NCBI RefSeq assembly: GCF_000455125.1
Contig: NZ_AUWR01000008.1
Location: 124,001-188,000, forward strand
Source of the DNA: Mycobacterium sp. UM_WGJ
Lineage (GTDB): Bacteria; Actinomycetota; Actinomycetes; Mycobacteriales; Mycobacteriaceae
Direction: 5' to 3'
DNA: 64,000 nt
In this document: piece after piece, positions 557 through 52,274 of the stretch
Layout: each line of letters starts with the position of its first letter
How positions within the stretch are numbered: position 1 is the stretch's first letter
Translations under genes and position numbers: made by a program
Notes under the pieces: generated by a model
Told to the model about the DNA's origin: nothing
The model's database searches: none
What the model saw: only the letters and a program-made list of their open reading frames with translations

Positions 557-1156
557 GCTCACCGCATTGACGGTCTGCCGCGGTGTCAAACAACTGGTGG
601 GCGCGGACGGTATCGAACCGCCGACCGCTGGTGTGTAAAACATCCGGAAACCGTGGAATGGCGTCTCACCCCGTCTCATTCGAGCAGGTCAAGCCACTTT
701 CCACGTCCCATAGAGTCTCTGTCATCACCCCCTGTTGCAGCGTGTCGGAGCCCACTGGGAACCCACTGGCTTGGCGGATGTGGGCTCCTGGGGCACTTCG
801 GCCGGACGCGACGTCAGCAAACTCCAGGACGCCAGCAAACCGGCCACCGATTTGTGCATACCCCAACTTGTTCGCGCGGGTGCGGTCGAGCCTGCGTCGG
901 CACGATGACGAGTTCCATACGCACTCCCCCGACACGGAACGCGGCAATCCGTGGTCGACTGCTGTCCCGTTCCGCATGCCTCATTGTGTGGCGCACCACG
1001 GCCCTTATGCCACTGCCCTACCGATTACGTCGGGGGGCCGCCGCGGACATAGATATGGGCGAACGAATCGGGTGGCTTCCGCTGACCGCCGGCAGCAGAC
1101 TGGCCGACGTCTCGGCCGTACATAGGGGTGTCGTCGGCAGGTGATGAGATGAAACG
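557..1156. other. Non-coding stretch containing the left tRNA fragment
   Basis: Apart from the 45-bp tRNA-Val fragment at 597-641 I see no supportable gene. Open frames here run antisense through the tRNA fragment or lack a ribosome binding site and any family motif. In a tRNA-integrating element the integrase gene usually sits next to an attachment site; no tyrosine-recombinase motif (R..HxxR..Y) is visible on either strand. Confidence 0.5.
597..641 (-). repeat. Left 45-bp tRNA-Val 3' fragment (putative att site)
   Basis: These 45 bp are identical to 17738-17782. Read on the minus strand they hold the distal anticodon-stem side, variable loop, T-arm and 3' acceptor strand of tRNA-Val, but the 5' half is absent, so this copy cannot fold as a tRNA. 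A perfect 3'-tRNA duplication at the far side of a gene block is the usual footprint of site-specific integration into a tRNA gene. Confidence 0.75.
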
Positions 1157-1675
1157 GTGAGTCGCCACAAACCGCCTCGGGAAGCCGCGCCGACGGTGGA
1201 GCCCCTGTCGTCGGATGCCACGCACACGGTGGCGTTCTTCAAGCGGCACCGCGACGACGACGCGACGCAGAGCTCGCCCGGTTTGGATGCGCTGTTGGGA
1301 TTCCCCTCGAACGTTCGGGCACGCCTGCTCGCGACCTTGGCCGCCGTGGCGAAGGCGCCGCCGAAGCGGTTTGCCGGAGGTGGGCAATGGGAGGCGTTGC
1401 ACGCAGACATGACCGGCTATTTCGAGGCGCGTGTCACCTCAAAAACGCCGAACGGCAAGTGGCACTACCGGCTGTTCTGCCTTCTCGACTACGACGGAGC
1501 GAGGACAACCTTGCCGTTGCTTACGGTGATCGACGGTGCAGCAAAGCCGTACCGCACGACCCTGTCCGATAAGCGTTACGCCGAGGTGCGGGCGCTGGGA
1601 GACGAGTACCTGCGGCGCAAACCGAGGTCGCTCGCCACCGACGACGACATCCGCGCCGCGAAGGGAGTGAACTAG
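1157..1675 (+). CDS. Putative RelE/HigB-superfamily toxin-like protein
   Basis: A 172-residue protein starting at GTG 1157. The centre (about residues 75-150) has a RelE/HigB-type pattern: a WEALH..M.GYFEAR strand pair, then HYRLFCLLDY, a hydrophobic strand LPLLTVIDG, a basic K/R-rich stretch (KPYRTTLSDKRY) and a C-terminal helix with Arg and Lys. Such proteins are mRNA interferases in characterised type II toxin-antitoxin pairs. It is longer than a usual RelE (about 90-110 residues) because of an N-terminal extension of some 60 residues. It converges on the helix-turn-helix gene at 1672-2010, the two stop codons overlapping by 4 bp, whereas HigBA-type pairs are normally tandem. The function is inferred; the fold match is moderate. 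Confidence 0.5.
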   Translation: MSRHKPPREAAPTVEPLSSDATHTVAFFKRHRDDDATQSSPGLDALLGFPSNVRARLLATLAAVAKAPPKRFAGGGQWEALHADMTGYFEARVTSKTPNGKWHYRLFCLLDYDGARTTLPLLTVIDGAAKPYRTTLSDKRYAEVRALGDEYLRRKPRSLATDDDIRAAKGVN

Positions 1676-2010
1676 GCGCAGGCCCGCATGGGTGCGGTGA
1701 TACGGGTGCGCTCGTCCTCCGACATCGGCGTGAGTGTCACCTTCATGCCTAGCGCTGCTGCGACCTCGGCGATGGTGCTGAGCGTGGGGTTCACCGACTC
1801 CGACGACAGCAGTCGCCGCACGGTGCTCGGGTCAGCGCCGATCGCTCGAGCCAGTGCCGCCTTACTGAGCTTTTCCGTCCCTCGCGCCTCGTCGAGCGCG
1901 TTGATGATCGAATCGATCGCCTCGATCCGGGCCGACTCGGCGGCGTACGCACGGGCGAACTCGGGGTCGTTACCCTCGATCTCAAGCAACGTGCTGAACA
2001 CGTCGTTCAT
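1672..2010 (-). CDS. XRE/Cro-type helix-turn-helix protein, probable antitoxin (HigA-like)
   Basis: A 112-residue protein with a helix-turn-helix in the middle: LSKAALARAIGADPSTVRRL followed by NPTLSTIAEVAAALGMKVTL, which is the XRE pattern of HigA antitoxins and phage repressors. The N-terminal half (about residues 1-50) is an acidic helix that could bind a basic toxin. I chose ATG 2010 because GAGAGG lies 8 nt upstream; a GTG at 2019 would overlap that ribosome binding site. The downstream gene on the opposite strand encodes a RelE/HigB-like protein, so a toxin-antitoxin role is likely. Because the genes converge, the antitoxin would have its own promoter and could not co-regulate the toxin as one operon. 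Confidence 0.6.
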   Translation of the reverse strand: MNDVFSTLLEIEGNDPEFARAYAAESARIEAIDSIINALDEARGTEKLSKAALARAIGADPSTVRRLLSSESVNPTLSTIAEVAAALGMKVTLTPMSEDERTRITAPMRACA

Positions 2011-2323
2011 GGGGATCACCTCTCTTTCGGCCGTGCGACAGACAACCGAAAGCGTAACATAAATGCCACGCTTCGGCCAGGGTGCGGAAGGGTTGAACCG
2101 CCGGTCGGGGTGGTGTCAACCTTCAAGCACGGGCGAAGGCGCGAACAGGACGTCGGCATCCTTCCAGGACTCCTCCGTTTTGTTCTTGGTCAGCCCTGTT
2201 TACGCCGATAATCCCCAGACTAGTCACCGGAGGCAACGGCTACGGACGCCGGAACAACCGCCGAGAACGCCTAACGATGTCGTGCGCCGCGTGGCGGGCA
2301 GAACGATGCGCCGTTTCGGACCG
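2011..2323. other. Intergenic stretch
   Basis: This stretch carries the antitoxin ribosome binding site (near 2019-2026) and presumably its promoter, plus the region downstream of the SDR gene. No other gene is supported; the long plus-strand frame across it is antisense to the SDR. Confidence 0.5.
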
Positions 2324-3163
2324 TTACTTGAGCATGCTGCCGGCGTCGACGGTGACGGGCAAGCCGGTGATGTAGCGGGATTCGTCGGAGGCCAGGAACA
2401 GCACGGCGTTGCTGATGTCGACCGGTTCGACCCAGCCGATGGGCAGGGTGTGCATGAACTGAGCCGCCACTGCGAGATCATCCGGGCCCGGGTTCTCCAG
2501 GTCCGGACGGAACAGTTTCATGGTGCCCTCGTTCATGAACATCGGAGTGTTCACGTTGGTGGGGCAAACCGCGTTGACGCGGATGAAATGCTGGCCGAGT
2601 TCGACGGCGAAGGTGCGCATCAGGCCGATCACGCCGTGCTTGGCGGCGATGTAGTGACCGGTGTTGGGGTAGGGCTTCAGACCGCCGACCGAGCTGGTCA
2701 TGATGATCGATCCGCCGTTTCCACCGGCGATCAGATGTGGCACAGCGGCTTTGACGGTCTTCCAGACGCCGGAGAGGTTGACGCCGATCATGTCGTCCCA
2801 GTCGGATTCGCTGGTCTTGTCCAGCGTTTCGCCGCCGTTGCCGATGCCGGCGTTGGCGACGACGATGTCGAGTCGCCCGAGTTGCTCGACGCCGTTGTCG
2901 AGTGCCGCCTTGAGCGTGTCGTAATCGCGGACGTCGACCTGGGCGGTGACGATCCGGCGGCCGAGGTTCTTGACCAGGTCCACGGTCTGGGCGAGGTCGT
3001 CGGGATTGGACGGCGCGATCTGGCTGTCCGGGGTGATGGGGCCGCAGATGTCGACCGCGATGATGTCGGCGCCTTCCTCGGCCAGCCGGACCGCGTGGCT
3101 CCGCCCCTGCCCTCGGGCGGCGCCGGTGACGAAGGCAACCTTGCCTGCTACGCGTCCACTCAC
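2324..3163 (-). CDS. Mycofactocin-coupled SDR family oxidoreductase
   Basis: A 279-residue short-chain dehydrogenase. The cofactor motif is TGAARGQGRSHAVRLAEEGA, ending in a VDIC strand, then an insert of about 30 residues before DVRD. This signature marks the mycofactocin-coupled SDRs of actinobacteria, which hold NAD(P) tightly and pass electrons to the peptide-derived redox carrier mycofactocin. The catalytic residues are present: NAG at about residue 105, Ser in TSSVGG, and Tyr/Lys in HYIAAKHG. It probably oxidises an alcohol to a ketone or aldehyde. It lies next to a TetR gene transcribed the same way and near a ferredoxin-P450-aldehyde dehydrogenase operon, so an alcohol made by the P450 is a reasonable substrate (inference). 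Two further mycofactocin-type SDRs lie at 14801-16431. Confidence 0.85.
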   Translation of the reverse strand: MSGRVAGKVAFVTGAARGQGRSHAVRLAEEGADIIAVDICGPITPDSQIAPSNPDDLAQTVDLVKNLGRRIVTAQVDVRDYDTLKAALDNGVEQLGRLDIVVANAGIGNGGETLDKTSESDWDDMIGVNLSGVWKTVKAAVPHLIAGGNGGSIIMTSSVGGLKPYPNTGHYIAAKHGVIGLMRTFAVELGQHFIRVNAVCPTNVNTPMFMNEGTMKLFRPDLENPGPDDLAVAAQFMHTLPIGWVEPVDISNAVLFLASDESRYITGLPVTVDAGSMLK

Positions 3164-3230
3164 GGAATACCTCGATTCTCGGATCGCCCGAACGGCAGCT
3201 CGGACGGTGCGTCATTCGTGTCGATCAACT

Positions 3231-3245
3231 TTGTCGATCGATCAG
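3231..3245. promoter_or_regulatory. Possible TetR operator upstream of the SDR gene
   Basis: TTGTCGATCGATCAG lies about 70 bp upstream of the SDR start and contains the self-complementary core CGATCG. The element TCGATCAG recurs in the spacer between the TetR gene and the ferredoxin gene (4003-4010). A shared motif next to both promoters suggests one repressor controls both. Weak evidence. Confidence 0.3.
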
Positions 3246-3312
3246 GAACGATGGCAGGTGATGGGCCAGCTGTCAATAGCGGGAGCCCAATCCGGCTGAG
3301 GCAGAGCTTGGG

Positions 3313-3921
3313 TCAGGTGGCGGGGTTGGCGTGATCGAACTGGTGTTGTGTGAGCAGCTGGAGTTGTCGTTCGACGAACTCGCGCAGTTCGGCGTGCCCC
3401 AGAGTGACGCCGACGGCGTCCTCGTTGCACAGGCTGCGGCCGGTTTGGGCGATGAGCATCGAGATCGCGATGGGTGGATAGAGTTTGGTGTCGATTCCCC
3501 GGGCGCGCAGCGCGACCGCGACGGCGGCAGTCTCGATATCACGGACCCGTTCGGCGTAGGTCTTCAGTTCCGCGCGAATCGCCTTGCGGTGATTGGCCAG
3601 TGCCATGAACTCGGTATTCAGGACTGTCAGCCGGTCATCGGAATTCATCGTCCACAGCGTGAGCAACGGATCGTCGGCGTTGAGCGCATCCCGCATCCGG
3701 GCCAGCGAAACCTCGGCGCCGGAGCGGAGCACTTCGACGAACAGATCGTCCATCGACGGGAAGTAGTAGTAGACCAGGGCCTGCTTGACGCCGGCTTCGG
3801 CGGCGATCCGCCGCGAGGTGGCCGCGGCATAACCCTCATCGAGCATAAGTTTGGCGGTGGCCTCGATCAATCGGGTGCGTGCACCGCCGTCGGTGCTACG
3901 GGCCTTGCGCGGTACCGCCAT
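3313..3921 (-). CDS. TetR/AcrR family transcriptional regulator
   Basis: A 202-residue protein with an N-terminal TetR DNA-binding domain: RTRLIEATAKLMLDEGY, TSRRIAAEAGV (recognition helix region), then ALVYYYFPSMDDLFVEVL. The C-terminal 140 residues form a ligand and dimer domain not assignable to a substrate class. It is divergent from the ferredoxin-P450-ALDH operon (105-bp spacer) and transcribed toward the SDR gene at 2324. It most likely represses both until a substrate or CoA ester binds, as is usual for regulators placed this way. ATG 3921 is the first start and gives a normal TetR N-terminus. Confidence 0.88.
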   Translation of the reverse strand: MAVPRKARSTDGGARTRLIEATAKLMLDEGYAAATSRRIAAEAGVKQALVYYYFPSMDDLFVEVLRSGAEVSLARMRDALNADDPLLTLWTMNSDDRLTVLNTEFMALANHRKAIRAELKTYAERVRDIETAAVAVALRARGIDTKLYPPIAISMLIAQTGRSLCNEDAVGVTLGHAELREFVERQLQLLTQHQFDHANPAT

Positions 3922-3995
3922 TCAGCATTCCCCCGTCGGCTGGTTGCTTGACCGGCAATCCCGCCGGATGGTAGACATGCAGCATTCTAGCAATT

Positions 3996-4010
3996 TGGTC
4001 AGTCGATCAG
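3996..4010. promoter_or_regulatory. Possible TetR operator between divergent genes
   Basis: TGGTCAGTCGATCA is an imperfect inverted repeat (TGGTC against GATCA) only about 17 bp before the ferredoxin start, in the spacer shared with the TetR gene. The position suits auto-repression and control of the P450 operon. The TCGATCAG half also occurs upstream of the SDR gene. Confidence 0.35.
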
Positions 4011-4026
4011 TAGAGGTGGGCGAGCG

Positions 4027-4230
4027 GTGAGCGTTTCCCGGCGCGTGGTCGTCGATCCGCACCTGTGCGAAGGGCACGCGCTGTGCCTCGAGTCAGCCCC
4101 GGAGTTGTTCGATCTGGGCGACGATGACGTCGCGACCTGCGTCCAGCAGCCGTCGGCGGAGCAGTGGGATCTGGTCCACGCGGCCATCGATGCCTGCCCA
4201 CGCGGTGCCATCAGCATCGTCGAGACCTGA
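4027..4230 (+). CDS. Ferredoxin of the [3Fe-4S] P450-partner type
   Basis: A 67-residue acidic ferredoxin. The cluster ligands are visible: CEGHALC at about residues 14-20, with His in the middle place where a [4Fe-4S] protein would have the fourth Cys, then CPRGAI near residue 57. Small ferredoxins of this type pass single electrons from a reductase to a cytochrome P450. The gene is 51 bp upstream of a P450 in the same direction, so the pair is almost certainly one electron-transfer unit. No ferredoxin reductase is encoded nearby; one from elsewhere in the genome must serve. GTG 4027 is the only start that leaves the first Cys region intact. Confidence 0.88.
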   Translation: MSVSRRVVVDPHLCEGHALCLESAPELFDLGDDDVATCVQQPSAEQWDLVHAAIDACPRGAISIVET

Positions 4231-4281
4231 GACTCAGCCCCTCCCTCCCGCCGGTTTCTTCCATGAAAGGACAGCCCGTCC

Positions 4282-5562
4282 ATGACCGACCTCGCCTTCG
4301 TCGACTTCTTCTCCGATCCGGCACTCGCGCAGGATCCCTACGCGTACTTCGATGCCCTGCGTGAGCAGAACCCGGTGTTCCGGGAGCCGCATCAGGGCGT
4401 CGTCGCGGTCACCGGCTACCAGGAGGTGATGGCAGCGTTCAAGGATCATGAGACCTTCTCGGCGGTCAACGCGATCGGTGGGCCGTTCCCGCCGCTGCCG
4501 TTCACCCCCGAGGGTGATGACATCAGCGCACAGATCGAGGCACACCGCCATCTGTTCCCGATCCACGAGCACATGGTCGTCATGGACCCGCCCGCTCATG
4601 AGAAGGCGCGTTCACTGTTGAGCAAGCTACTGACCCCGCGGCGCCTGAAGGAGAACGAGGACTTCATGTGGCAGCTGGTCGATCAGCAGATCGACCAGTT
4701 CATCGACAACGGGAAATGCGAGTTCCTGTCCGAGTACGCCAAACCCTTTGCCACTTCGGCGATCATCGACCTGCTCGGCGTGCCAGAAGAGGATCGCCCC
4801 GAGTTCCTCGCCGCCCTGGGCGCCGAACGCCCGGAAGGCAACCGGGTCGGCGCCCTCGACGGTGAGGCAGTCGGCCTGGATCCCTTGAAGTATCTCGACG
4901 ACCGGTTCGCTGGCTATCTCGCAGCCCGCCGCGCCGAACCGCGCGACGACGTGCTCTCGGGCATGGCGTCCGCGCTCTACCCGGACGGGTCGACCCCGGA
5001 CCTCTCCGAACTCGTCAAGCCCGCGACGTTCCTGTTCGCCGCTGGGCAGGAAACCGTCACCAAACTGCTGTCGGCCTCTGTGCAGGTGCTCGGCGATAAC
5101 CCCGATTATCAGCAGCGGCTGCGCGAAAACCCTGATGGCATACCGACGTTCATCGAGGAAGCGCTGCGGATGCACGCGCCGACGAAGGTCGATTTCCGAC
5201 TGGTCCGGCACACGACCGAACTCGGCGGGGTGCATCTGCCGGCCGGCACCATCGTGATGCTGTGCCTGGGCGCGGCCAACCGCGACCCGCGCAAGTTCGA
5301 GAACCCGCACGAATTCCGGCCCGACCGCAAAAACGTTCGCGAGCACATCGCCTTCGGCCGCGGCATCCACACCTGCGCCGGCGCACCCCTGGCCCGCGTC
5401 GAGGGACAGATCACCGTCCGCCGCCTGCTCGACCGGATGAGCGAGATCCGCATCGACGCGGATTTCCACGGCCCGACCGGTCACCGCAACTACGCCTACG
5501 AACCCACCTTCCTGCTGCGCGGCCTGACCGAACTGCACATCGAGTTCGACCGGGCTCGGTAG
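4282..5562 (+). CDS. Cytochrome P450
   Basis: A 426-residue soluble bacterial P450. The I-helix oxygen-activation region reads [10 protein letters not shown] (about residues 251-260), the K-helix ExxR is EEALR, and the heme-binding loop is [15 protein letters not shown] with the thiolate Cys. The length is normal for class I bacterial P450s. It would hydroxylate a hydrophobic substrate using electrons from the ferredoxin just upstream and O2. The I-helix has Gln before Glu-Thr where many relatives have Gly or Ala and Asp/Glu; the acid-alcohol pair itself is intact. The subfamily and substrate cannot be assigned by eye. The order ferredoxin, P450, aldehyde dehydrogenase suggests oxidation through an alcohol and aldehyde to an acid (inference). 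Confidence 0.93.
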
Positions 5563-5600
5563 CTCAGCCCGACTCTCTCAAGACCGAAAGGTTGTCCTAC

Positions 5601-7052
5601 ATGGCGTTTCAGGCTGTCCTCGACGAGCTCCGTCAGCGGCCCGGCACCGGCGACATGATCCCGATCATCGACCCGGTCAGCGAGGAGCAGATCGGTGAAT
5701 TCACCGATGGCGGCGCGGCGGCGGTCGATGACGCTGTCGCCCGGGCCCGGGCCAGCTTCGAATCCGGTGTGTGGCACCAGAAACCGGGATCGGAACGGGC
5801 GAAGGTGCTCGGACGTATTGCCGACCTGATCGACGAGCACGCCGACGAGCTGGCCGACATCGATTCCCGCAACACCGGCATGCCGCTGATGCAGGCCCGG
5901 GCGATCATGGGAACGAGCGCGGAGATCTTCCGCTACTACGCCGGCTGGTGCACCAAGCTCAACGGCATCGCCCACGATGTGCAGCAGACCGGTGGGATCA
6001 CCGGCGTCGACTCGAACATGCACGGCTACACCCTCAAACAACCGTACGGGGTGGTGGGGCTGATCTTCCCGTGGAACGGACCGGTGTTCAACGCCTGCAC
6101 CAAGCTGGCGCCCGCACTCGCCGCCGGCTGCAGCAGCGTCGTGAAACCCGCCGAGGAAACCCCGCTTTCAGCGATCGTGATCGACAAACTCCTCACCCAG
6201 GCGGGAGTCCCCGACGGCGTGGTGAACCTGGTAACCGGCTACGGACACACCGCCGGCGCCGCGATCAGCGAACACCCCGGCATCGAGAAGGTCGCCTTCA
6301 CCGGCTCCACCGAAGTCGGCAAACGCATCGTGCAGGCCGCCAGCGGCAACCTCAAACGCGTCACACTCGAACTCGGCGGCAAGTCGCCCGTGTTGATCTA
6401 CGACGACGCCGACCTCGACACCGCCATCCTGATGGCCGCGATGGGGATCTTCATCCACTCCGGCCAGGGCTGCATCTGCGGATCGCGAATCTTCGCCCAC
6501 CGCAACGTCTATGAGCGCGTCCTCGAAGGTGTCGCGAACCTGGCCAACACGGTCACGCTGGGCGGTCCGGCCGAGGAGGCGCTGATCGGACCGCTGATCA
6601 GCCAGAAGCAGCTGACCCGCGTGCTGGGGTTCATCGACGAAGGCAAGCGCGACGGCGTCGAGCTGGTGACCGGGGGGCACCGCCTCGATCGCAAGGGCTA
6701 CTTCGTGCATCCGACGGTACTGACCGATGTGGATCCCACGATGCGCCTGTACCAGCAGGAGATCTTCGGGCCCGTCGTCCCGATCCTGCCGTTCGACGAC
6801 GACGACCAAGTCGTCGCTCTGGCGAACGACTCCGACTACGGTCTGGCGGCAACGGTGTGGACCAAGGACGTCGGCCGGGCCCACCGGTTGGCCAAGCGCC
6901 TGGAATCCGGAACAGTTACCGTCAACTGCCAGATGGTGTTCGACCACTCGATGCCCTTCGGCGGCTGGAAACAATCCGGCTGGGGCTACGAATGGGGCCG
7001 CGACGGCGTCGAATCATTCATGAAGAACAAGAGCGTCTACGTTCAGCTCTAA
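5601..7052 (+). CDS. NAD(P)+-dependent aldehyde dehydrogenase
   Basis: A 483-residue aldehyde dehydrogenase. The cofactor loop is FTGSTEVGK, the general-base motif is LELGGKSP, the nucleophilic Cys sits in [11 protein letters not shown], and the C-terminal [11 protein letters not shown] motif is present. It oxidises an aldehyde to a carboxylic acid. I chose ATG 5601 because GAAAGG lies 10 nt upstream; the open frame continues further upstream only as an antisense-like reading of the P450 gene. It is 38 bp downstream of the P450 and on the same strand, so it is probably cotranscribed with ferredoxin and P450. The substrate is unknown. Confidence 0.92.
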
Positions 7053-7137
7053 GTCGAACCGAGTTCCAGGAGTTGGCGCGGGAGCTCCTGCAAGACAGTG
7101 GGATACGGGGTGCCGTTCTTGCTCGGCGCTGCCGTTA

Positions 7138-7161
7138 TTACTCTATATTCGTAGTGAGTAA
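7138..7161. promoter_or_regulatory. Inverted repeat, probable TetR operator for the LLM gene
   Basis: TTACTC and GAGTAA form perfect 6-bp arms around 12 bp, about 40 bp upstream of the LLM-oxidoreductase start. The left part, ACTCTA...GTAG, resembles the palindrome at 10931-10946 in front of the second aldehyde dehydrogenase (13 of 20 positions identical in register). One regulator, most likely the TetR at 10969, may bind both. Confidence 0.45.
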
Positions 7162-7199
7162 CTGCGCACCTGCACTACCGCTGAGGAGAAGATCCCGAC

Positions 7200-8120
7200 A
7201 TGAGACTGCTCTTCAACCTGCCACACATGCTGCGACTCAAGGCCACCATGCAGCCGTGGGAGGCGCAGGTCACCGGCGCAGATCAGACGCGGATGGTCAA
7301 GCACGCCGATGCGCTCGGATACGACATGGTCGCGGTGCCGGAGCATTTCATCATTCCGTCCGAGCATGTCGAACTGTCCGGGCCGCATTACTTCCATTCG
7401 ACGGTCGCACAGGCCTACCTGGCCGGCGCGACCGAGCGGATCCTGTTGAATTCCTGTATCACGGTGCTGCCGTTGCAGAACCCGATCGTCCTGGCCAAGG
7501 CCTTGGCGACGGCGGATTGGCTCAGTAGCGGCCGGATGATGGTCACCTTCGGGGTCGGTTGGCTCGAGCGCGAGTTCGATCTCCTCGGCGTGCCGTTCCG
7601 GGAACGCGGCCGCATCGCCGACGAGTACCTCGCCGCGATCGTCGAGTTGTGGACCGCCGAGTCGCCACAGTTCCAGGGAAAGTACATTTCGTTCGACGAT
7701 GTCGCGTTCGAACCCAAACCCGTTCAAAAGCCGCATCTTCCGATCTGGATCGGCGGCGACGCCGACGCCGCCCTGCAACGCGCCGCGAAGTACGCCACCG
7801 GATGGTGGTCCTTCCTGACCCCGCCGGAGAAGATCGCCGAGCGCGTCGCGTTCATCAAATCGCAGCCGGGCTACAACGGCCGCGACTTCGACGTGGTCCA
7901 CGGACTGGGCACCAACCGGGTCGGCGAGGGACACGCGGTCCAGGATGATCCGCACGCCCGCCCGGGGATGAGCGCCGCGGAGATCGTCGACAAACTCGGC
8001 TGGCTGACCGAACAGGGCGTCACCGTCAGCGCAGTGCCGCTTCCGCCATTGAGCGGCGTGGAGGAATACCTCGATTACAGCCAGTGGCTAATCGAAGAAG
8101 TCAAAACCCAGCTGCCCTAG
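7200..8120 (+). CDS. LLM-class flavin oxidoreductase (probably F420-dependent)
   Basis: A 306-residue luciferase-like TIM-barrel protein. Typical landmarks are an early helix ending ALGYDMVAVPEHF, TERILLNSCITVLPLQNP, the GRMMVTFGVGWLEREF segment, and PIWIGGDADAAL near residue 180. Mycobacterial members of this group usually use coenzyme F420 for hydride transfer to ketones, enones or alcohols. The ribosome binding site GAGGAG lies about 11 nt before ATG 7200. The gene stands alone on the plus strand and converges on the minus-strand operon, with a 4-bp stop overlap against the hypothetical gene at 8117. An inverted repeat at 7138-7161 points to TetR control. FMN rather than F420 cannot be excluded by sequence reading. 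Confidence 0.85.
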   Translation: MRLLFNLPHMLRLKATMQPWEAQVTGADQTRMVKHADALGYDMVAVPEHFIIPSEHVELSGPHYFHSTVAQAYLAGATERILLNSCITVLPLQNPIVLAKALATADWLSSGRMMVTFGVGWLEREFDLLGVPFRERGRIADEYLAAIVELWTAESPQFQGKYISFDDVAFEPKPVQKPHLPIWIGGDADAALQRAAKYATGWWSFLTPPEKIAERVAFIKSQPGYNGRDFDVVHGLGTNRVGEGHAVQDDPHARPGMSAAEIVDKLGWLTEQGVTVSAVPLPPLSGVEEYLDYSQWLIEEVKTQLP

Positions 8121-8584: not shown

Positions 8585-8597
8585 CAGCGCCGCTTTC

Positions 8598-9374
8598 CTA
8601 CAGGGCCATCGAGTAGCCGCCGTTGACACAGATCGTCTGCCCGGTGATCCAGGCGCCGTGCTCACTGGCCAATGTGAGCGCCAACTGGGCGACGTCATCG
8701 GGTGATCCCGGGCGGCGAATGGCGTAGTTCGCCAGGATCGCCTTGGCCTGCGGAGAATCGGCGTGCTCGGCCCACAGCGCCTCGGTCAGCGGGGTGCGCA
8801 TGGTGCCCAGCGAGATGTTGTTGGCGGTGACGTTGTAGCGGCCGTTCTCCAGCGCCACCGACCGGGTCAGGCCGGCCGCTCCGGCCTTCGCCGCCCCGTA
8901 CACCGCACCGCCAGGGTCCCCCGTACGGCCGGCATCCGACACGATCGTCAGAATGCGGCCCCACTGGTTGGCAACCATCCCCGGCAGCACCGCACGGGTG
9001 CAATGCAGGACGCCGTACAGGTTCACCCGAAGGAACGCCTCCCAGTCGCCCGGCTCTGTGTCGGCGAACTTCGCCCGGTTCGCGAACCCCTCGGCACCCG
9101 CATTCCCGGCGTTGTTGACCAGGACATCGACCGGGCCCGCCGCGCTGATCGCGGCGGTGACGGCGGCGTAATCGGTGACGTCGAACGGAACCGCCTGCGC
9201 CGCCGCACCACCGGCGCGAATCTCATCGACCACCGCCTGGGCGCGTTCGGCACGCAGATCGTTGACCAGGATTTCGGCTCCCGCGGCGGCGAAGGCGTCC
9301 GCCAAGCCGCGGCCGACGCCCTGACCGGCGCCGGTGACCAGGACCCGGCGACCCGCAAGATCGAGCTCGCTCAT
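8598..9374 (-). CDS. Classical SDR family oxidoreductase
   Basis: A 258-residue short-chain dehydrogenase. The nucleotide motif is TGAGQGVGRG at about residues 15-24, the structural NNAG motif is intact, and the active site has Ser in IVSDAG and Tyr/Lys in YGAAKAG. The C-terminus ends INGGYSMAL-like (VNGGYSMAL), as in classical NAD(P)-dependent SDRs. It lacks the SHAVRLA signature and extra loop of the mycofactocin-coupled group found elsewhere in this island, so it probably uses freely exchangeable NAD(P). It overlaps the upstream aldehyde dehydrogenase by 4 bp (ATGA), which implies translational coupling. Substrate not identifiable; alcohol or 3-hydroxyacyl oxidation is typical. Confidence 0.87.
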   Translation of the reverse strand: MSELDLAGRRVLVTGAGQGVGRGLADAFAAAGAEILVNDLRAERAQAVVDEIRAGGAAAQAVPFDVTDYAAVTAAISAAGPVDVLVNNAGNAGAEGFANRAKFADTEPGDWEAFLRVNLYGVLHCTRAVLPGMVANQWGRILTIVSDAGRTGDPGGAVYGAAKAGAAGLTRSVALENGRYNVTANNISLGTMRTPLTEALWAEHADSPQAKAILANYAIRRPGSPDDVAQLALTLASEHGAWITGQTICVNGGYSMAL

Positions 9375-10930: not shown

Positions 10931-10946
10931 CTCTACTTATGTAGAG
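10931..10946. promoter_or_regulatory. Perfect palindrome, probable TetR operator
   Basis: CTCTAC TTAT GTAGAG is a perfect 6-bp inverted repeat with a 4-bp centre, 75 bp upstream of the aldehyde dehydrogenase start and just after the TetR gene. It resembles the inverted repeat in front of the LLM gene (7138-7161). Confidence 0.6.
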
Positions 10947-10968
10947 CGATATGGCAAGGCCGCGGTAG

Positions 10969-11598: not shown

Positions 11599-11634
11599 GA
11601 GCCCGAGAGTCTAGCCCGAGGGGCGAGGTCCGGA

Positions 11635-12567
11635 CTAGGTATCGCCATCGGGACCGCCGATCTTCAGACGGGTTCGAATCATGGTCATCTGACTGGCGAA
11701 GAACTGGTTGGCAACAAGCGTTTTCGGGGCGACGGCGTCGAAACCGTGGAAACCGCCGGGGACGACTTCGAGGTGACACTCGACTCCGGCCTCGCGTAGG
11801 CGCTCCGCGTAGGCACATGCCTCGTCGTGCAGCACATCCAGGTTGCCGACACCGATCCACGTCGGCGCGAGGCCGCACAGGTCACCGCGCCGGGCCGGCA
11901 CCGCCGTCACGGGGTCAACCCCGCCGAGATAAGCGCGCCACCCCAATGTGCTGCTCGCGGCGTTCCACAGCCTGCGCAGCCCGGCCACGGGGTCCTCCCC
12001 ACTCGCGCAGCGGTCGTCGAGCATGGGATAGATAAGCACCTGGGCGGCCACAGTGATCTCACCCCGGTCACGCGCCCGCAGCGCCACGGCCGCGGCCAGA
12101 CCACCACCCGCGCTCGCACCGGCGACTGCTAGTCGGGAGCCGTCGACGCCGGGTTGCGCGGCCAGCCAGCACAACGCCTCGTAGCAGTCGTCCAGTGCCG
12201 CCGGATACGGGTGTTCTGGGGCCAACCGGTAGTCGACGGCACAGACCGGGATGTCCAGTTCGGTTGCCATCCGGCGGCACAGGGTGTCGTCCATGGCCGC
12301 GTTCCCGAGCACGTAACCGCCGCCGTGGATCCACAGCAGCGCGCCACCGCGATCCTGCCGCCGCTCCGGTGGCCGGTGTACGCGCACACCGATGCCCGAG
12401 GGCAGGACGTGCACGGAGGTTCCGGGCCGGCATTTCGCCCGGCGGGGAAGCCGGCGGAAGACGGTGACCGTCAGCGGCGTGACGAGCGTACGGGGTAGGT
12501 AGCGGGCGTACCGCCGCAACTCGGGGTGGAATTCCCGTGCGGCCAGCCGGTGCCAGATGGTCACCAC
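11635..12567 (-). CDS. Alpha/beta hydrolase of the hormone-sensitive lipase (HSL) family
   Basis: A 310-residue esterase/lipase. It has the HSL oxyanion motif HGGGYVLG, the nucleophile elbow GASAGGG, an Asp in the NLDVLHDE region and the His in GGFHGFD, giving a complete Ser-Asp-His triad. There is no clear signal peptide, so it is probably cytosolic. Mycobacterial relatives (Lip proteins) cleave short- to medium-chain esters. It begins 6 bp after the stop of the aldehyde dehydrogenase at 12574 and ends the SDR-SDR-CMD-ALDH operon, so it may hydrolyse an ester or lactone arising in that pathway (inference). Confidence 0.9.
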   Translation of the reverse strand: MVTIWHRLAAREFHPELRRYARYLPRTLVTPLTVTVFRRLPRRAKCRPGTSVHVLPSGIGVRVHRPPERRQDRGGALLWIHGGGYVLGNAAMDDTLCRRMATELDIPVCAVDYRLAPEHPYPAALDDCYEALCWLAAQPGVDGSRLAVAGASAGGGLAAAVALRARDRGEITVAAQVLIYPMLDDRCASGEDPVAGLRRLWNAASSTLGWRAYLGGVDPVTAVPARRGDLCGLAPTWIGVGNLDVLHDEACAYAERLREAGVECHLEVVPGGFHGFDAVAPKTLVANQFFASQMTMIRTRLKIGGPDGDT

Positions 12568-12573
12568 CTGTAC

Positions 12574-14013
12574 TCAAGCCAGCCCGATCCGAATGTTCTT
12601 GACCTGCTGGAATCCCTGCAACCCTTCCAGGCCGCCGGTGCGTCCGGCGCCGCTGTGCTTGTAACCGCCGTAAGGTCCCTGCGGAGATATTCGGCTGCCC
12701 TGGTTGATCCAGATCGACCCGGCCTGTAGTTGACGCGCGACGGTGTGCGCGCGGGTCAGGTCGCGGGTGTGCACGAAGGCATTCAGACCATATCGAGTGT
12801 CGTTGGCGATCCGCACGGCCTCGGCGTCATCGCTGAACCGGATCAAGGAAACGACGGGGCCGAAGGTCTCGGTCTGCGCCAGTACCGAGCTGTTGTCGAC
12901 ATCGCCGAAGACCGTCGGTTCCAGGTAATAGCCGTGTGCGAGTTCACCTTCGGCGATCCGGTGACCGCCGGTGAGCAATTGTCCGGCGCCGTCTGCTACG
13001 GCACCGTCGACCGCAGCGAGGATACGATCGGCCGCGGCCTTGGAGATGACGGGCCCGAAGGTGGTGGCGGGGTTCAGCGGGTCGCCGACGCGTGCGGCGG
13101 CGATCACGGCGAGGAAGCGCTGGGTGAAGGCGTCGTAGACGCTGCCGTGGACCAGGATGCGACTGGCGCACGCGCAGCTCTGTCCGGACTGCATCAGCGG
13201 GCCCTGGTGCGCGGAATGTACGGCGGCGGTGTCGAGGTCGGCGTCGGCGAAGACGATGTTGGCCGACTTGCCACCGAGTTCGGTGACCACCGGGGTGAGG
13301 TTCTCGGCAGCCGTCCGCAGGACGGTGCGTGCGGTGTGCTCACCGCCGGTGAAGTGGATCTTGCCGATCCCCGGATGACGCACCAGGGCCTCTCCCCCCT
13401 CGGCGGCGGCGGGCACGACATTCACCAGCCCGGGCGGCAGGCCGGCTTCCAGGCACAGTTCCCCGAACCGCAGTGCGGCCAGGGGTGCCAGTTCCGACGG
13501 TTTGAACACCACGGCGTTTCCCGCGGCCAGCGCCGGCGCCACACACGACGCGGCGACGACGAGGGCTCCGTTCCACGGGGCGATGACGCCGACCACCCCG
13601 TACGGTTCGCGTTCGATGAGGTTGAGGTCAGCGCTGCCGCTGACCGGAGTGCTGGTCCCATGGGGTTTGTCGACATAGCCGGCGAAGTGGCGCAGGAACT
13701 GTTCCAGCAGAATCCCGTTGCCGGCGTAGGAGATCGGCACCCCGTAGTCGCGGGTGTTGAGTTCGGCCAGTTCGGCCAGGTGTTCATGCACGACGTCGGC
13801 GAGATGGATCAGCGCGTCGCGGCGATGGTCCACCGACAGTGCCATCCACTGCCGCTGCGCTTCCCCGGCGACGGCGACCGCGCGGTCGATCTCGGCGGCA
13901 CCGGCCAACGCGACCACCGCGTTCGGGACCCCGGTCGCCGGGTAGACGTGCTCATGTACCGATGTCGCGGTGACCCGGTCGTCACCGATGAGCAACCCGA
14001 CGGCGTGCGTCAC
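12574..14013 (-). CDS. Aldehyde dehydrogenase family protein
   Basis: A 479-residue aldehyde dehydrogenase. The motifs are FTGGEHTAR (cofactor loop; Gly replaces the usual Ser-Thr), VTELGGKSANIVF, the catalytic Cys in MQSGQSCACASR, and PYGGYKHSGAG at the C-terminus. I chose GTG 14013 because it overlaps the upstream gene's stop as GTGA, the same coupling seen through this operon; the longer open frame only reads through the upstream gene. The second Cys pair after the catalytic residue (SCACAS) is slightly unusual. It sits between the carboxymuconolactone-decarboxylase-fold protein and the HSL-type hydrolase. The third ALDH of the island; the substrate is unknown. Confidence 0.9.
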   Translation of the reverse strand: MTHAVGLLIGDDRVTATSVHEHVYPATGVPNAVVALAGAAEIDRAVAVAGEAQRQWMALSVDHRRDALIHLADVVHEHLAELAELNTRDYGVPISYAGNGILLEQFLRHFAGYVDKPHGTSTPVSGSADLNLIEREPYGVVGVIAPWNGALVVAASCVAPALAAGNAVVFKPSELAPLAALRFGELCLEAGLPPGLVNVVPAAAEGGEALVRHPGIGKIHFTGGEHTARTVLRTAAENLTPVVTELGGKSANIVFADADLDTAAVHSAHQGPLMQSGQSCACASRILVHGSVYDAFTQRFLAVIAAARVGDPLNPATTFGPVISKAAADRILAAVDGAVADGAGQLLTGGHRIAEGELAHGYYLEPTVFGDVDNSSVLAQTETFGPVVSLIRFSDDAEAVRIANDTRYGLNAFVHTRDLTRAHTVARQLQAGSIWINQGSRISPQGPYGGYKHSGAGRTGGLEGLQGFQQVKNIRIGLA

Positions 14014-14804
14014 GAGGCCGCCTCGTCGGCCCATTCCTGGGTCACGCGCTGCTTCTGCTCGGCGATCACCTGGTTGAGGTGTGAACCTTTCGGCCAGCCG
14101 TAGTGTGCGGCGAAATGCAATGCCAGTTCGTCCATCTCGTCGAAGGACACGTCGCGACTCTTCAGCGCGGCATAGACGTGGCTCAGGATCGGATAGGCGG
14201 CGTCCTGGAAAGCAACGCAGGCGACGGTGATCAGCCGCCGTTCCTTCATGCCGAGGCCGGGCCGCTGCCACATCTCGCCGAACACGAAATTCAGGATGCC
14301 GGCGCCGTGGAACGGGTTGTTCCGCGTCGGCGCGTACTCCAGGCAGTTGACGTCCTTGAACGCCTGTTCACCGCCGGCGATGCGGGCCTCCGGGTCACTG
14401 GGTGTCGTTAGCGGCAACAGCGGTACGGCATCCGGCACCGGTAGTCCACGTTCCCGGTTGACCCGCTCCCACTGTTCGTCGACGACCATGTTGAACCAGG
14501 ACGCTTTCGGCCATCCCGCGTAGACGGCGAAATGCAGCACGGTTTCCTGCATTTCGACGATCGACAGGTCGCCGCTGTTGAGAGCGGCGTACACGTGGTC
14601 GCGCAGGGGTTGATCGGCATCGGCGGCCGCCACACACGGTAGCGTGACAAACCGGCGCTCCCGTCGGGTCAGGCCGGGCCGCTGCCACACTTCGGCGAAC
14701 ACGAAGTCCAGCAGGTTCACGGTGGCCGGCGAGGTGTCTTCGGGGGCCGGCACCGTCATGATGTCGGCAAAGGCCTGGCGGCCCCGCTCCAAACGGTCAG
14801 TCAT
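14010..14804 (-). CDS. Tandem carboxymuconolactone-decarboxylase-fold protein
   Basis: A 264-residue protein with two copies of the CMD/AhpD-like helical fold. Copy one spans about residues 40-115 (WQRPGLTRRERRFVTLPCVAA, then LRDHVYAALNSGD and VLHFAVYAGWPKAS). Copy two spans about 165-245 (WQRPGLGMKERRLITVACVAF, then LSHVYAALKSRD and ALHFAAHYGWPKGS). The copies align closely, so the gene arose by internal duplication. The CxxC pair of AhpD peroxidases is absent and each copy keeps a single Cys, so a lyase, isomerase or hydrolase-like role as in 4-carboxymuconolactone decarboxylase is more likely than a redox one. It overlaps both operon neighbours by 4 bp. Confidence 0.82.
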   Translation of the reverse strand: MTDRLERGRQAFADIMTVPAPEDTSPATVNLLDFVFAEVWQRPGLTRRERRFVTLPCVAAADADQPLRDHVYAALNSGDLSIVEMQETVLHFAVYAGWPKASWFNMVVDEQWERVNRERGLPVPDAVPLLPLTTPSDPEARIAGGEQAFKDVNCLEYAPTRNNPFHGAGILNFVFGEMWQRPGLGMKERRLITVACVAFQDAAYPILSHVYAALKSRDVSFDEMDELALHFAAHYGWPKGSHLNQVIAEQKQRVTQEWADEAAS

Positions 14805-15604
14805 CGAATCGTCACTCCCGCATCGACTTTGAACTCCAGGCCGGTGACATACCGGGCCTCATCGGAGATCAGGAACAGCACCGCATTGCTGATGTCGACG
14901 GCCTCGGCCATCACAATGGGCAATGCGTTCTGGAAGATGGGACCCAGATCGGCCCGGGTCTCGTGCAGCAGGGTGTGCAACGTCGTCGGCTGCATCCCGG
15001 TCGGGACCCCGGTCGGGTGCACGGTGTTCACCCGGATGTTCACCGCAGCAAGCTCATTGGCCAACGCCTTGCTCATCCCGACGACTCCGTGTTTGGACGC
15101 CGTGTACGGCGTGTGCAGCGGTGAACCCTTGACACCGGCCGCCGAACTGATGTTGACCAGGCTGCCGCCGTGTTCCACCAGGTGCGGGATGGCGGCCCGG
15201 CAGGTGTTCCAGCTGCCGATCAGGTTGACGTCGACGACGGTGCGCCACTGCTCGGCGGTGGTGGTGTCCCAGGTGCCGCCGGTCAGCACCCCGGCGTTGG
15301 CCACCGAGGCGTCCAGTCCCCCTAGTTGGGCCACCCCGTCGTCCACCGCCGCGGTCAAGGCCTCCAGGTCGCGCACATCGACGACGTGGGTGACCGCACG
15401 ACGCCCCTGTTCGGTAACCAGCCGGGCAGTCTCGGACAGTTCTTCGGTTGTGGCCAAAGGGTATTCGATGACGGGTAGGGATTCGCAGATGTCCACGAGG
15501 ATCAGGTCGGCGCCCTCTTGGGCCAGCCGCACGGCGTGGCTGCGGCCCATCCCGCGGGCAGCCCCGGTGACAAGGACCTTCTTGCCCTCGACCCGGCCGG
15601 TCAC
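14801..15604 (-). CDS. Mycofactocin-coupled SDR family oxidoreductase
   Basis: A 267-residue SDR with TGAARGMGRSHAVRLAQEGA followed by ILVDIC and the extra loop before DVRDLEAL, the mark of mycofactocin-coupled enzymes. The active site is visible as Ser in NISSAAG and Tyr/Lys in YTASKHG. It is the second gene of the minus-strand operon that starts at 16431, and ATGA overlaps join it to both neighbours. It and the following paralogue are clearly related, and both resemble the SDR at 2324. They likely oxidise successive or stereochemically different alcohols of one substrate, with electrons leaving through mycofactocin (inference). Confidence 0.87.
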   Translation of the reverse strand: MTGRVEGKKVLVTGAARGMGRSHAVRLAQEGADLILVDICESLPVIEYPLATTEELSETARLVTEQGRRAVTHVVDVRDLEALTAAVDDGVAQLGGLDASVANAGVLTGGTWDTTTAEQWRTVVDVNLIGSWNTCRAAIPHLVEHGGSLVNISSAAGVKGSPLHTPYTASKHGVVGMSKALANELAAVNIRVNTVHPTGVPTGMQPTTLHTLLHETRADLGPIFQNALPIVMAEAVDISNAVLFLISDEARYVTGLEFKVDAGVTIR

Positions 15605-16431
15605 AGCTTGTTGCAGAAGCCGGCGTCCACGGGGAACGTGACCCCGGTGACGTACTGGGCGGCGTCGGACACCAGGTAGGCGATCGCGGCGCTGATGTCT
15701 TCCGGTTCCAGCATGCCGACCGGCATCGGATTCTGCAGGTGCGGCCCCCCGTCGGGGTAGGCCTCCAAGAACGCAGTCATCTGCGGGTTGGTGGCCATCA
15801 TGGTGTTGACCGCCGTCGGATGCACGGTGTTCACCCGAATACTATAGGGCGCCAAGGCATTCGCCAGCGTGCGCATCAGCCCGACAATGCCGTGCTTGGA
15901 CGCCGCATACCCCAGGCCGCCGCCCTGTGAACCACCGAAGCCCTTCAACCCGGCAGTCGAACTGGTGAACACGATCGCCCCGCCCCGCTCCCCGGCGATC
16001 AAATGCGGGATCGCCGCCTTGGCGGTATGGAAGGAGCCGACCAGGTTGACGTCGATGACGGCGGTCCACATGTCGAGGTCTTCCTCGATGCTGGTCTCCC
16101 GGAACGCCGTCGGTGCGATCCCGGCATTGGCGCACACGATGTCCAGCCGGCCGAACTGCTCCACGCCAGCATCCACTGCGGACTTCAGCGCGTAGAAGTC
16201 CCGGACATCGGCAACGGTGGCAAGCATCTTTCCGCCCGCCGCCTCGACCAGCGTCACCGTTTCGTCGAGCTCGTCACGCGAGGCCATCGGATAGCCGTTG
16301 GCCGCGATGTCGGCGCAGATGTCGACCCCGATGATGTTCGCACCCTCGCTCGCCAGCCGGACCGCATGGCTGCGGCCCTGCCCGCGCGCCGCGCCCGTGA
16401 TGAAGGCGACTTTTCCGTCCAGTGAACCCAT
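15601..16431 (-). CDS. Mycofactocin-coupled SDR family oxidoreductase, first gene of the operon
   Basis: A 276-residue SDR starting MGSLDGKVAFITGAARGQG, with SHAVRLASEGA and a GVDICAD strand, the mycofactocin-coupled pattern. Ser lies in FTSSTAG and Tyr/Lys in YAASKHG. I prefer ATG 16431 because GAGGAG precedes it, though the spacing is short; ATG 16446 would add five residues but has no visible site. It opens the operon SDR-SDR-CMD-ALDH-hydrolase. Its promoter region is shared with the divergent TetR gene at 16506 and holds two near-identical palindromes, so it is almost certainly TetR-repressed. Confidence 0.87.
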   Translation of the reverse strand: MGSLDGKVAFITGAARGQGRSHAVRLASEGANIIGVDICADIAANGYPMASRDELDETVTLVEAAGGKMLATVADVRDFYALKSAVDAGVEQFGRLDIVCANAGIAPTAFRETSIEEDLDMWTAVIDVNLVGSFHTAKAAIPHLIAGERGGAIVFTSSTAGLKGFGGSQGGGLGYAASKHGIVGLMRTLANALAPYSIRVNTVHPTAVNTMMATNPQMTAFLEAYPDGGPHLQNPMPVGMLEPEDISAAIAYLVSDAAQYVTGVTFPVDAGFCNKL

Positions 16432-16452
16432 TGCTCCTCGCTTCATTGCCCA

Positions 16453-16488
16453 GTAACCAAGTTACAGGCGGTACTGTAACCACGTTAC
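16453..16488. promoter_or_regulatory. Twin palindromic operators GTAAC-N3-GTTAC
   Basis: GTAACCAAGTTAC (16453-16465) and GTAACCACGTTAC (16476-16488) are perfect 5-bp inverted repeats with 3-bp centres, spaced 23 bp centre to centre. They lie between the divergent SDR operon and TetR gene and end just before the TetR ribosome binding site. This is a textbook place for auto-repression plus control of the operon, probably by two cooperating TetR dimers. Confidence 0.75.
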
Positions 16489-16505
16489 ACACAGGAGGGC
16501 AAGGG

Positions 16506-17096
16506 ATGAGCGAAGCCGTAGCGACAGAACTCGAGGGCGACCGGCTGCTCGACGTCGTCGTCGGCATCCTCGAAACCGAGGGCTACGACGCCGTTCAGCT
16601 CCGCGAGGTCGCCCGGCGGGCGAAGACGTCCCTGGCGACCATCTACAAGCGCTACCCCACCCGCGACGACCTGATCCTCGGCGCGCTCGAGTATTGGACA
16701 CAGCAGAACCGCTACGCCGATCTGCCCACCGCCGCTCCCGGTGCGTCGCTCTACGAATCCTTGATGCAGTTGTTCCGCGCCATCTTCGAACCCTGGGAAC
16801 GCCACCCGGCGATGCTCGCGGCCTACTACCGAGTGCGGTCATCTCCCAACGGACAGAAGCTCTTTCGGTTCGGCCTCGACGTGGTAGCGCCGGCCGGCCG
16901 GGAGATCTTCGACGGCGTCGACGCCGACTTCGTCGAAGACTTCACCGACGTCATCTCCAGCGTCATCTACGGACTCCTCGGGCGGTATGCAACCGGGGAG
17001 ATCGCGGTCACCGACATCCTGCCCATCCTCGACCGCACGGTCTACTGGCTGACCCGCGGATGCGAGTCGTCCGAGAACACCCGAACGGCGACCTGA
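16506..17096 (+). CDS. TetR/AcrR family transcriptional regulator
   Basis: A 196-residue protein. The DNA-binding domain covers about residues 10-60: LLDVVVGILETEGYDAVQLR, EVARRAKTSLATIYKRYPTRDDLI. The rest is a helical ligand domain. ATG 16506 follows AGGAGGGCAAGGG, a strong ribosome binding site; earlier in-frame starts would run through the operator pair. It is divergent from the SDR-SDR-CMD-ALDH-hydrolase operon and is its likely repressor, with the GTAAC palindromes as binding sites. The inducer is unknown. Confidence 0.9.
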   Translation: MSEAVATELEGDRLLDVVVGILETEGYDAVQLREVARRAKTSLATIYKRYPTRDDLILGALEYWTQQNRYADLPTAAPGASLYESLMQLFRAIFEPWERHPAMLAAYYRVRSSPNGQKLFRFGLDVVAPAGREIFDGVDADFVEDFTDVISSVIYGLLGRYATGEIAVTDILPILDRTVYWLTRGCESSENTRTAT

Positions 17097-17737
17097 CCCG
17101 AATTAGGGTCAGTCCCCGGCGACCCGCAACCTCCTCAACTCGGGGCGAGGTGCACTACTCGGATGAAACGCACACTGGCATCACGCCAAGACCAACCATT
17201 GCGCTCAGCGAGCAACACGGTGACCTGATGGATTCGTTGTGTCGCACCCGTGGACGACATTCGACAAATGGCGGTTCCTGCCCATCGTCGACAATGATTA
17301 CCGAGTTCTGGACGTCGCAGTCACGATGTTTTCGGGGTCACTCGCAGACCCCAACGGGAGACCCGCACAGCTAACACTCGCCTCCTGCCGCCAGGCAGAC
17401 ATGCGCGCAATTGCTCTCGGACATTCTCGGGATACTGCGCCTCCAGATCCAGCGCCCGAACTCGACCCAGAGCTGCGGAAATCAAGCCGTTGACCTGCAA
17501 TGACTTTGGCGGCCGGAGAGGATCCCCGAACCCCCGAGCGCTGGTGTAGAGGTCTAGCGCCAACCAGAAACGGCGCCTCGAGAAGAGGCATCCGTGCAGG
17601 TCAGCGTCCAAGCGCCGTCTCCCAGCGTCTCAACCGTTTCACCTGTAGCAGCACGGCGGGGCCCACGCGGGGGACACAGGGGCGCAAAGGCGCTTGTTCA
17701 GCAAACTCCCAAAGGGCCTTGAAGTGCAGTTATACCT
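17097..17737. other. 641-bp stretch without a recognisable gene, next to the right att site
   Basis: No open frame here combines a start, a ribosome binding site and a family motif. Frames of 80-100 codons exist on both strands but look like chance frames of GC-rich DNA. The stretch lies between the last island gene and tRNA-Val, where an integrase or its remnant might be expected. I see no recombinase motif. Confidence 0.5.
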
Positions 17738-17782
17738 GTGGGCGCGGACGGTATCGAACCGCCGACCGCTGGTGTGTAAAAC
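17738..17782 (-). repeat. Right 45-bp repeat within tRNA-Val (putative att site)
   Basis: Identical to 597-641. Here the 45 bp are the 3' part of the complete tRNA-Val gene plus one base beyond it. Identity ends inside the anticodon stem: the right copy goes on into intact tRNA sequence while the left copy diverges. Confidence 0.75.

Positions 17783-49913: not shown

Positions 49914-52274
<2,361 letters not shown>

What the first reader, a model, noticed from the sequence alone, without database searches (positions are those of the whole stretch)
597..17782. 17-kb island bounded by a 45-bp tRNA-Val duplication, with no integrase
The 45-bp repeats are identical. The right copy is inside an intact tRNA-Val, the left copy is a 3' fragment, and the DNA between holds accessory oxidative modules while the flank to the right is conserved core. 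The geometry is that of tRNA-site integration. No integrase is visible, so the island may be immobilised or moved in trans. The DUF6480-like gene at 338 would be the original neighbour of the tRNA.
Basis: partly seen in the sequence, partly recalled or inferred. Interest (0 to 1): 0.72.

Follow-up and report, generated by a model that had tools for sequence, protein, structure and literature searches.

The report
Integrase-less composite island at tRNA-Val
A 17-kb block of oxidation genes sits at a tRNA gene that relatives also use as a docking site for mobile DNA; the block was most likely put there by site-specific recombination, has no integration enzyme of its own, and carries what looks like the scar of a second insertion.

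Summary
In detail: 597-641 and 17738-17782 are identical over 45 bp, and the right copy is the 3' part of an intact tRNA-Val(TAC). The predicted empty site exists: in relative G022 the gene at 338-556 runs directly into tRNA-Val and ahpE; in G110 that gene is also joined to tRNA-Val. The tRNA is a hotspot: at least 22 of 118 genus genomes carry a second core copy, and the 20 best hits of one tyrosine-integrase family all lie within 5 kb of a core copy. The window's draft genome has no member of that family at E <= 1e-60.

New here: arm sequences flank the cores at fixed offsets. Matrices trained on other genomes only rank att2 and att1 first and second as proximal arms in the window, and att3 second as distal arm. 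They support a third, eroded core (att2, 17509-17553). The island is best read as element A (642-17508) plus a 184-bp remnant of element B. The outer cores are identical and the inner one eroded, so the composite probably arrived as one unit. It works like a cis-mobilizable element (CIME). Cargo: P450, aldehyde dehydrogenases, mycofactocin-type SDRs. New member of a known kind; movement was not tested.

The parts
338..556 (-). small 72-aa protein, original neighbour of the tRNA
   Evidence: joined directly to tRNA-Val in G022 and G110; no Pfam family
595..641 (-). att3: displaced 3' end of tRNA-Val with encoded CCA (595-597) and the 45-bp core 597-641
   Evidence: exact repeat; left flank as in the empty site of G022
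642..697 (.). distal attachment arm of element A; AGCAGGTCA at 683-691, +42 from the core
   Evidence: rank 2 of 63,850 anchors with a matrix from 14 distal arms of other genomes; 80% identity with G107 over 594-694, core included
1157..1675 (+). 172-aa protein, no Pfam family
   Evidence: similar DNA in G073, G112, G189
1672..2019 (-). Cro/C1-type HTH protein
   Evidence: PF13443
2324..3163 (-). mycofactocin-coupled SDR oxidoreductase
   Evidence: TIGR03971 390 bits, cut-off 300
3313..3921 (-). TetR-family regulator
   Evidence: PF00440
4282..5562 (+). cytochrome P450
   Evidence: PF00067
5601..7052 (+). aldehyde dehydrogenase
   Evidence: PF00171; start chosen
7200..8120 (+). F420-dependent LLM-class oxidoreductase
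   Evidence: TIGR03619 204 bits, cut-off 167
8598..9374 (-). SDR oxidoreductase
   Evidence: PF13561
9371..10900 (-). aldehyde dehydrogenase
   Evidence: PF00171
10969..11598 (-). TetR-family regulator
   Evidence: PF00440, PF17940
11635..12567 (-). alpha/beta hydrolase
   Evidence: PF07859
12574..14004 (-). aldehyde dehydrogenase (the frame is open further upstream)
   Evidence: PF00171
14010..14804 (-). carboxymuconolactone decarboxylase-like protein
   Evidence: PF02627
14801..15604 (-). mycofactocin-coupled SDR
   Evidence: TIGR03971 341 bits
15601..16446 (-). mycofactocin-coupled SDR
   Evidence: TIGR03971 367 bits
16422..17096 (+). TetR-family regulator
   Evidence: PF00440, PF17925
17487..17508 (.). 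proximal attachment arm of element A; TGACCTGCA at 17491-17499, -18 from the att2 core
   Evidence: rank 1 of 63,850 anchors with a matrix (-22 to -6) from 15 proximal arms of other genomes
17509..17553 (-). att2: eroded copy of the tRNA-Val 3' core inside the island
   Evidence: local scores 32-54 against five att-plus-flank references, 0 of 500 shuffles as high for any; alignment; place
17554..17737 (.). 184-bp remnant of element B: distal arm (TGCAGGTCA at 17595-17603, +42) and proximal arm (TGAAGTGCA at 17720-17728, -18 from att1)
   Evidence: att1 proximal arm rank 2 and att2 distal arm rank 1006 of 63,850; local alignment to distal arms, 0 of 200 shuffles as high, to proximal arms 7 of 200
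17738..17810 (-). tRNA-Val(TAC), intact; att1 core 17738-17782
   Evidence: ARAGORN; repeat
17857..18321 (-). ahpE-like peroxiredoxin, conserved flank

Best explanation
A tyrosine integrase inserted a 17.1-kb DNA circle into the 3' end of tRNA-Val(TAC), completing the tRNA with the circle's own 45-bp tRNA fragment and pushing the old 3' end (att3, with CCA) to the far side. SHOWN by sequence: the empty site in relatives, the exact core pair, arm sequences of the right polarity at both ends, a family of integrases beside this tRNA in other genomes, and no such integrase found in this draft genome. SHOWN: a third, eroded core (att2) with a clear proximal arm on its cargo side and a weaker distal arm on its tRNA side. 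INFERRED: the island is element A (catabolic cargo) plus the deletion remnant of a second element B stacked next to it; the pair moved as one unit through the outer sites, because att2 is eroded while att1 and att3 are identical. INFERRED: it could now leave only if an incoming element supplied the integrase, so it works like a cis-mobilizable element.
For: Empty sites: G022, one 302-bp match of 340-641 directly beside tRNA-Val and the ahpE DNA; G110, gene joined to tRNA-Val. Arms: matrices from 15 proximal and 14 distal arms of other genomes give att2 rank 1 and att1 rank 2 of 63,850 anchors for proximal and att3 rank 2 for distal; where no arm is expected the ranks are poor (att3 proximal 15,096; att1 distal 59,713). 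Hotspot: at least 22 of 118 genomes with a second core copy, by my count of the rows. Integrase: the 20 best of 64 listed matches of profile A1 in 198 genomes lie within 4.6 kb of a core copy, and all 20 genomes have two or more copies. Own genome: none. att2. Stacking and integrase decay are seen in G123: three cores, one whole and one interrupted integrase.
Against: The distal arm at att2 is only moderately placed (rank 1006, 1.6%). The att2 anchor was set by eye from the flank; the two neighbouring anchors score poorly. By local alignment the A distal arm is weak (9 of 200 shuffles as high) and a control stretch at 301-480 does as well (10 of 200). Four of 20 second copies in integrase-bearing genomes lie on other contigs. 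Conversion of att3 by the tRNA, or fast erosion of att2, could mimic composite transfer. An integrase could have been present at insertion and lost later. The own genome is a draft. No movement was observed.
Confidence: 0.75

Rival explanations
1. A single element with its own integrase inserted; the integrase was deleted afterwards and att2 is only the relic of an imperfect or re-used att site. No composite, no help in trans.
For: Occupants without the integrase are common: of the 22 genomes with a second core copy, 8 show no family member near the tRNA. One deletion explains the missing gene.
Against: att2's proximal arm ranks first in the whole window, and arm-like sequences follow on its other side, as in the stack of G123. 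att2 is eroded while the outer pair is exact.
Confidence: 0.17
2. The island is ancestral at this place, and G022 and G110 lost it by recombination between the repeats.
For: Clean excision between identical repeats would leave the same empty site.
Against: The P450-ALDH block is not beside tRNA-Val in any of the seven other genomes that hold it nearly whole; G093 and G097 hold other, shorter DNA between the same neighbours; the outer repeats do not differ in 45 bp although the flank differs from G022 by about 11%.
Confidence: 0.05
3. A plain tRNA duplication or homologous recombination made the repeat, without an integrase.
For: No integrase is present.
Against: The left copy is only the 3' part with CCA, the geometry of 3'-end integration; arm sequences of the right polarity at fixed offsets; an integrase family tied to the same site elsewhere.
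Confidence: 0.03

Closest known systems
Cis-mobilizable elements (CIMEs) and accretion (definition in passages of PMC5704250; Pavlovic 2004 and Bellanger 2011 seen only as its references)
   Same: No integration or transfer genes, both att sites kept, tandem with a second element at the tRNA side.
   Different: Descent from an ICE or IME is not shown; two integrase-bearing occupants sampled here (G034, G069) carry phage-type genes.
Streptomyces TR1/TR2 toxicogenic region (passages of PMC8369830)
   Same: Actinobacterial; a CIME separated from its driver by an internal att site.
   Different: Other integration site (aviX1), and the driver there is a whole ICE; here B is a 184-bp remnant.
Dehalococcoides ssrA islands (abstract and section 10 of PMC3146451)
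   Same: Catabolic cargo at one RNA gene; 15 of 31 islands without an integration module, which the authors suggest may be CIMEs.
   Different: tmRNA, not tRNA-Val; other cargo and hosts.
PhiRv2 (passages of PMC3861185) and mycobacterial PICI candidates (passages of PMC10654092)
   Same: Small integrase-bearing elements at tRNA genes of mycobacteria; PhiRv2 lies in a valine tRNA gene (valU); PICIs carry helicase and terminase genes as G034 does.
   Different: valU belongs to a Gly-Cys-Val tRNA transcript, a different place from tRNA-Val beside ahpE; the window island has no phage gene in the ORFs scanned. PMC10654092 has no 'ahpE' in its text and none of the 12 places with the letters 'val' names a valine tRNA; its figures are not held.

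Membership tests
Genomic island at a tRNA gene | flanking direct repeat including the tRNA 3' end, with an empty site in relatives | tested here: met
CIME | no integration genes | tested here: met
CIME | no transfer genes | tested here: met
   Pfam (E <= 0.01) shows none in the 20 ORFs scanned, two of them near or in the flanks; smaller ORFs were not scanned
CIME | attL and attR kept | tested here: met
   by sequence only: cores exact, arms placed; the att1 proximal arm has 7 of 9 motif letters
CIME | mobilised together with a related element after accretion | not testable with these tools
   a remnant of element B suggests past accretion; needs an experiment
CIME | descends from an ICE or IME | tested here: inconclusive
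   no conjugation gene left; two site mates carry phage-type genes
PICI / phage satellite | integrase plus replication or packaging genes | tested here: not met
   none in the 20 ORFs scanned (Pfam; PHROGs was not run on the window)

The most novel reading that the evidence does not exclude
In this genus the tRNA-Val(TAC)/ahpE junction is a shared dock where the integrases of phage-satellite-like elements move bystander metabolic clusters that are stacked beside them; the island is a catabolic cargo that arrived as a composite with such a helper and kept only att arms of it.
Probability: 0.3. Interest if true: 0.62.

Novelty: new member of a known kind. Interest (0 to 1): 0.45.

Why it matters
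It ties an accessory oxidation cluster to one recombination site and integrase family, offers a way in which an integrase-less island could still travel, and gives arm matrices with which other silent islands at this tRNA can be recognised and their stacking history read.

Tried and rejected
Integrase remnant inside the island: tblastn with four integrases against the window (best E 0.16) and a sensitive profile search (best E 0.49) gave nothing. Copies of the att core in mobile-element collections: no phage record, and two Streptomyces plasmids at 89% over 45 bp. Near homologues of the integrase: 1366 phage records, each best place under 60% identity, the 15 listed under 40%; 70 plasmid records, the 15 listed under 34%; so no known phage of this site was identified. 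The left junction as an exact 22-mer in genome contigs: 0 matches (records near the own genome may be left out there). Composition as island marker: not useful. Local alignment of arms: clear for the A proximal arm and for B against distal arms (0 of 200 shuffles each), weak for the A distal arm (9 of 200) and B against proximal arms (7 of 200); one control of three pairs of tests reached 10 of 200. The 9-mer motif was first seen by eye on sequences that included the window; trains on other genomes only. In one search I left three single-core loci (G097, G022, G016) out of the count of 15. Literature: the lists showed me no paper on islands at tRNA-Val(TAC)/ahpE in mycobacteria; open-access library, listings and passages only.
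Full report
What was checked. The two 45-bp copies at 597-641 and 17738-17782 are identical; a 36-bp part of the core occurs only there in the window's genome at up to 2 mismatches. The right copy is the 3' part of tRNA-Val(TAC), 17738-17810, minus strand. The left copy begins with TGG at 595-597, the complement of an encoded CCA, as in the empty site of G022; the tRNA copy has CTG there, so its gene now ends in CAG. So the left copy is the displaced original 3' end, and the tRNA was completed by the incoming DNA.

Empty site. A search of 118 genus members with 300-641 matched the 45-bp core in nearly all; beyond the core, three genomes besides the window's matched about 300 of the 342 bases (G093, G022, G110) and G097 matched 116 bases of the gene. 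In G022 the stretch 340-641 is one piece that runs straight into tRNA-Val and on to the ahpE DNA. In G110 (69% identity) the gene is also joined to a tRNA-Val; I did not look further there. In G093 and G097 the gene lies 2.9 and 2.7 kb from the tRNA with other DNA between.

Hotspot and integrase. By my count of the rows printed, at least 22 of 118 genomes (own included) have a second core copy; in some the second copy is on another contig, so not all are proven to be the same locus. A profile of nine integrases from such loci (A1) gave 64 listed matches in 54 of 198 genomes at E <= 1e-60, none in the own genome. I compared 36 of those 54 genomes with core places. The 20 best matches lie 0.1-4.6 kb from a core copy, and each of the 20 genomes has two or more copies, in G182, G067, G114 and G061 with the second on another contig. 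Of the next 11 matches, 2 lie within 7 kb of a core (G081, G092), 4 are far away on the same contig and 5 are on other contigs and cannot be placed. Of the 22 genomes with a second copy, 14 have a family member near the tRNA (in G107 in two pieces) and 8 do not: G000, G018, G024, G083, G089, G093, G115, G132. For G024, G089, G093, G115 and G132 the fetched loci also gave no tblastn match; for G018 and G083 this rests, whose list of genomes without match is cut after 20, so that G083 is inferred from the equal sample. In G089 a PF00589 match with two stop codons lies near the tRNA. Thus a duplicated site without the integrase is not rare.

Arms and the third att site. Cores at this tRNA are flanked by short arm sequences. 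TGACCTGCA, or at least 7 of its 9 letters, stands at -17 or -18 in 10 of 15 proximal arms from other genomes; TGCAGGTCA, or at least 7 of 9, stands at +42 or +50 to +52 in 9 of 14 distal arms. Matrices trained on those 15 and 14 arms, none from the window, and scored at every position of the window give: proximal arm, att2 rank 1 and att1 rank 2 of 63,850; distal arm, att3 rank 2. Places where no arm should be score poorly: att3 on the chromosome side rank 15,096, att1 on the tRNA-body side rank 59,713. The att2 distal arm is moderate, rank 1006. Shifting the att2 anchor by one base either way destroys the scores. att2 (17509-17553) was found as a degenerate copy of core plus flank: local score 54 with the G002 reference against at most 24 in 500 letter shuffles and at most 26 in other tiles of the window; the other four references gave 53, 47, 36 and 32, in each case above all 500 shuffles. 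Against the own core it has about 10 substitutions and 5 gap positions, with 3 end letters unaligned. The exact 9-mer TGCAGGTCA occurs twice in the 64 kb, either strand, both times beside att2; 6 of 100 shuffles of the window had two or more, so the count alone is not strong and the places are what matters.

Reading of the anatomy. From left to right: chromosome, att3, element A with distal arm at 642-697, cargo and proximal arm ending at 17508, att2, a 184-bp remnant B with distal-like and proximal-like arm sequences, att1 in the tRNA, ahpE. G123 shows the same kind of stack with three cores, one whole integrase and one interrupted. Because att2 is eroded while att1 and att3 agree in all 45 positions, and the flank differs from G022 by about 11%, the erosion of att2 is most simply older than the insertion in this lineage; the composite would then have moved as one unit through its outer sites. 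This step is inference; conversion of att3 is not excluded.

Cargo. Three mycofactocin-coupled SDRs over the curated cut-off, a P450, three aldehyde dehydrogenases, an F420-type oxidoreductase over its cut-off, another SDR, an alpha/beta hydrolase, a carboxymuconolactone decarboxylase-like protein and three TetR regulators. The P450-ALDH pair is nearly full length in seven other genomes of 198, none with it beside tRNA-Val as far as contigs allow; in G016 the SDR, TetR and a second ALDH stand in the same order. The substrate is not known. Composition is ordinary, which fits a donor from the same genus.

Comparison with the known. PMC5704250 (passages) defines a CIME as an element that lost integration and transfer genes but kept attL and attR, describes accretion at the att site in the target gene, and says that transfer of whole composites cannot be excluded. 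The window matches the sequence criteria. Descent from an ICE or IME is open: of the site mates, G034 and G069 have Xis-like and helicase genes and G034 a terminase large subunit (6 of 20 and 4 of 11 listed ORFs scanned against PHROGs), like the mycobacterial PICI candidates in PMC10654092 (passages). PhiRv2 is an integrase-bearing element in another valine tRNA gene, valU (passages of PMC3861185). I therefore say that it works like a CIME and do not file it firmly as one.

Noticed in passing
window 17736-17738: The tRNA-Val gene now lacks an encoded CCA (it reads CAG after the discriminator base), while the displaced copy at 595-597 has it; the tRNA then depends on CCA addition.
   Followed up: partly
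window 1157-2019: A convergent pair of a 172-aa protein without Pfam family and a Cro/C1-type HTH protein; similar DNA (77-85%) occurs in G073, G112 and G189. Possibly a toxin-antitoxin-like or regulatory pair (inference).
   Followed up: partly
L050 (G123) 1740-13072: Three att cores in a row; the integrase of the second element is interrupted by about 2.3 kb that holds other ORFs, transposase-like by recall only.
   Followed up: partly
L043 (G034) 1077-16912: A 16-kb tRNA-Val element with integrase, Xis-like HTH, helicase/primase, DNA invertase and terminase large subunit: satellite-like (6 of 20 listed ORFs scanned).
   Followed up: partly
G149, G164 and G211: Two core copies 80, 115 and 121 kb apart with the integrase near one of them: very large elements or stacks at the same site.
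   Followed up: no
L045 (G002): The second core copy lies 13 kb away on the opposite strand, suggesting an inversion after insertion.
   Followed up: no
window 50844-50928: ARAGORN calls a tRNA-Arg(TCG) of 85 bases, long for a tRNA-Arg.
   Followed up: no
L038 (G093) 2545-5432: A 2.9-kb insert between tRNA-Val and the 338-556 homologue with a core pair and no family integrase, in a near relative: an independent occupant without integrase.
   Followed up: partly
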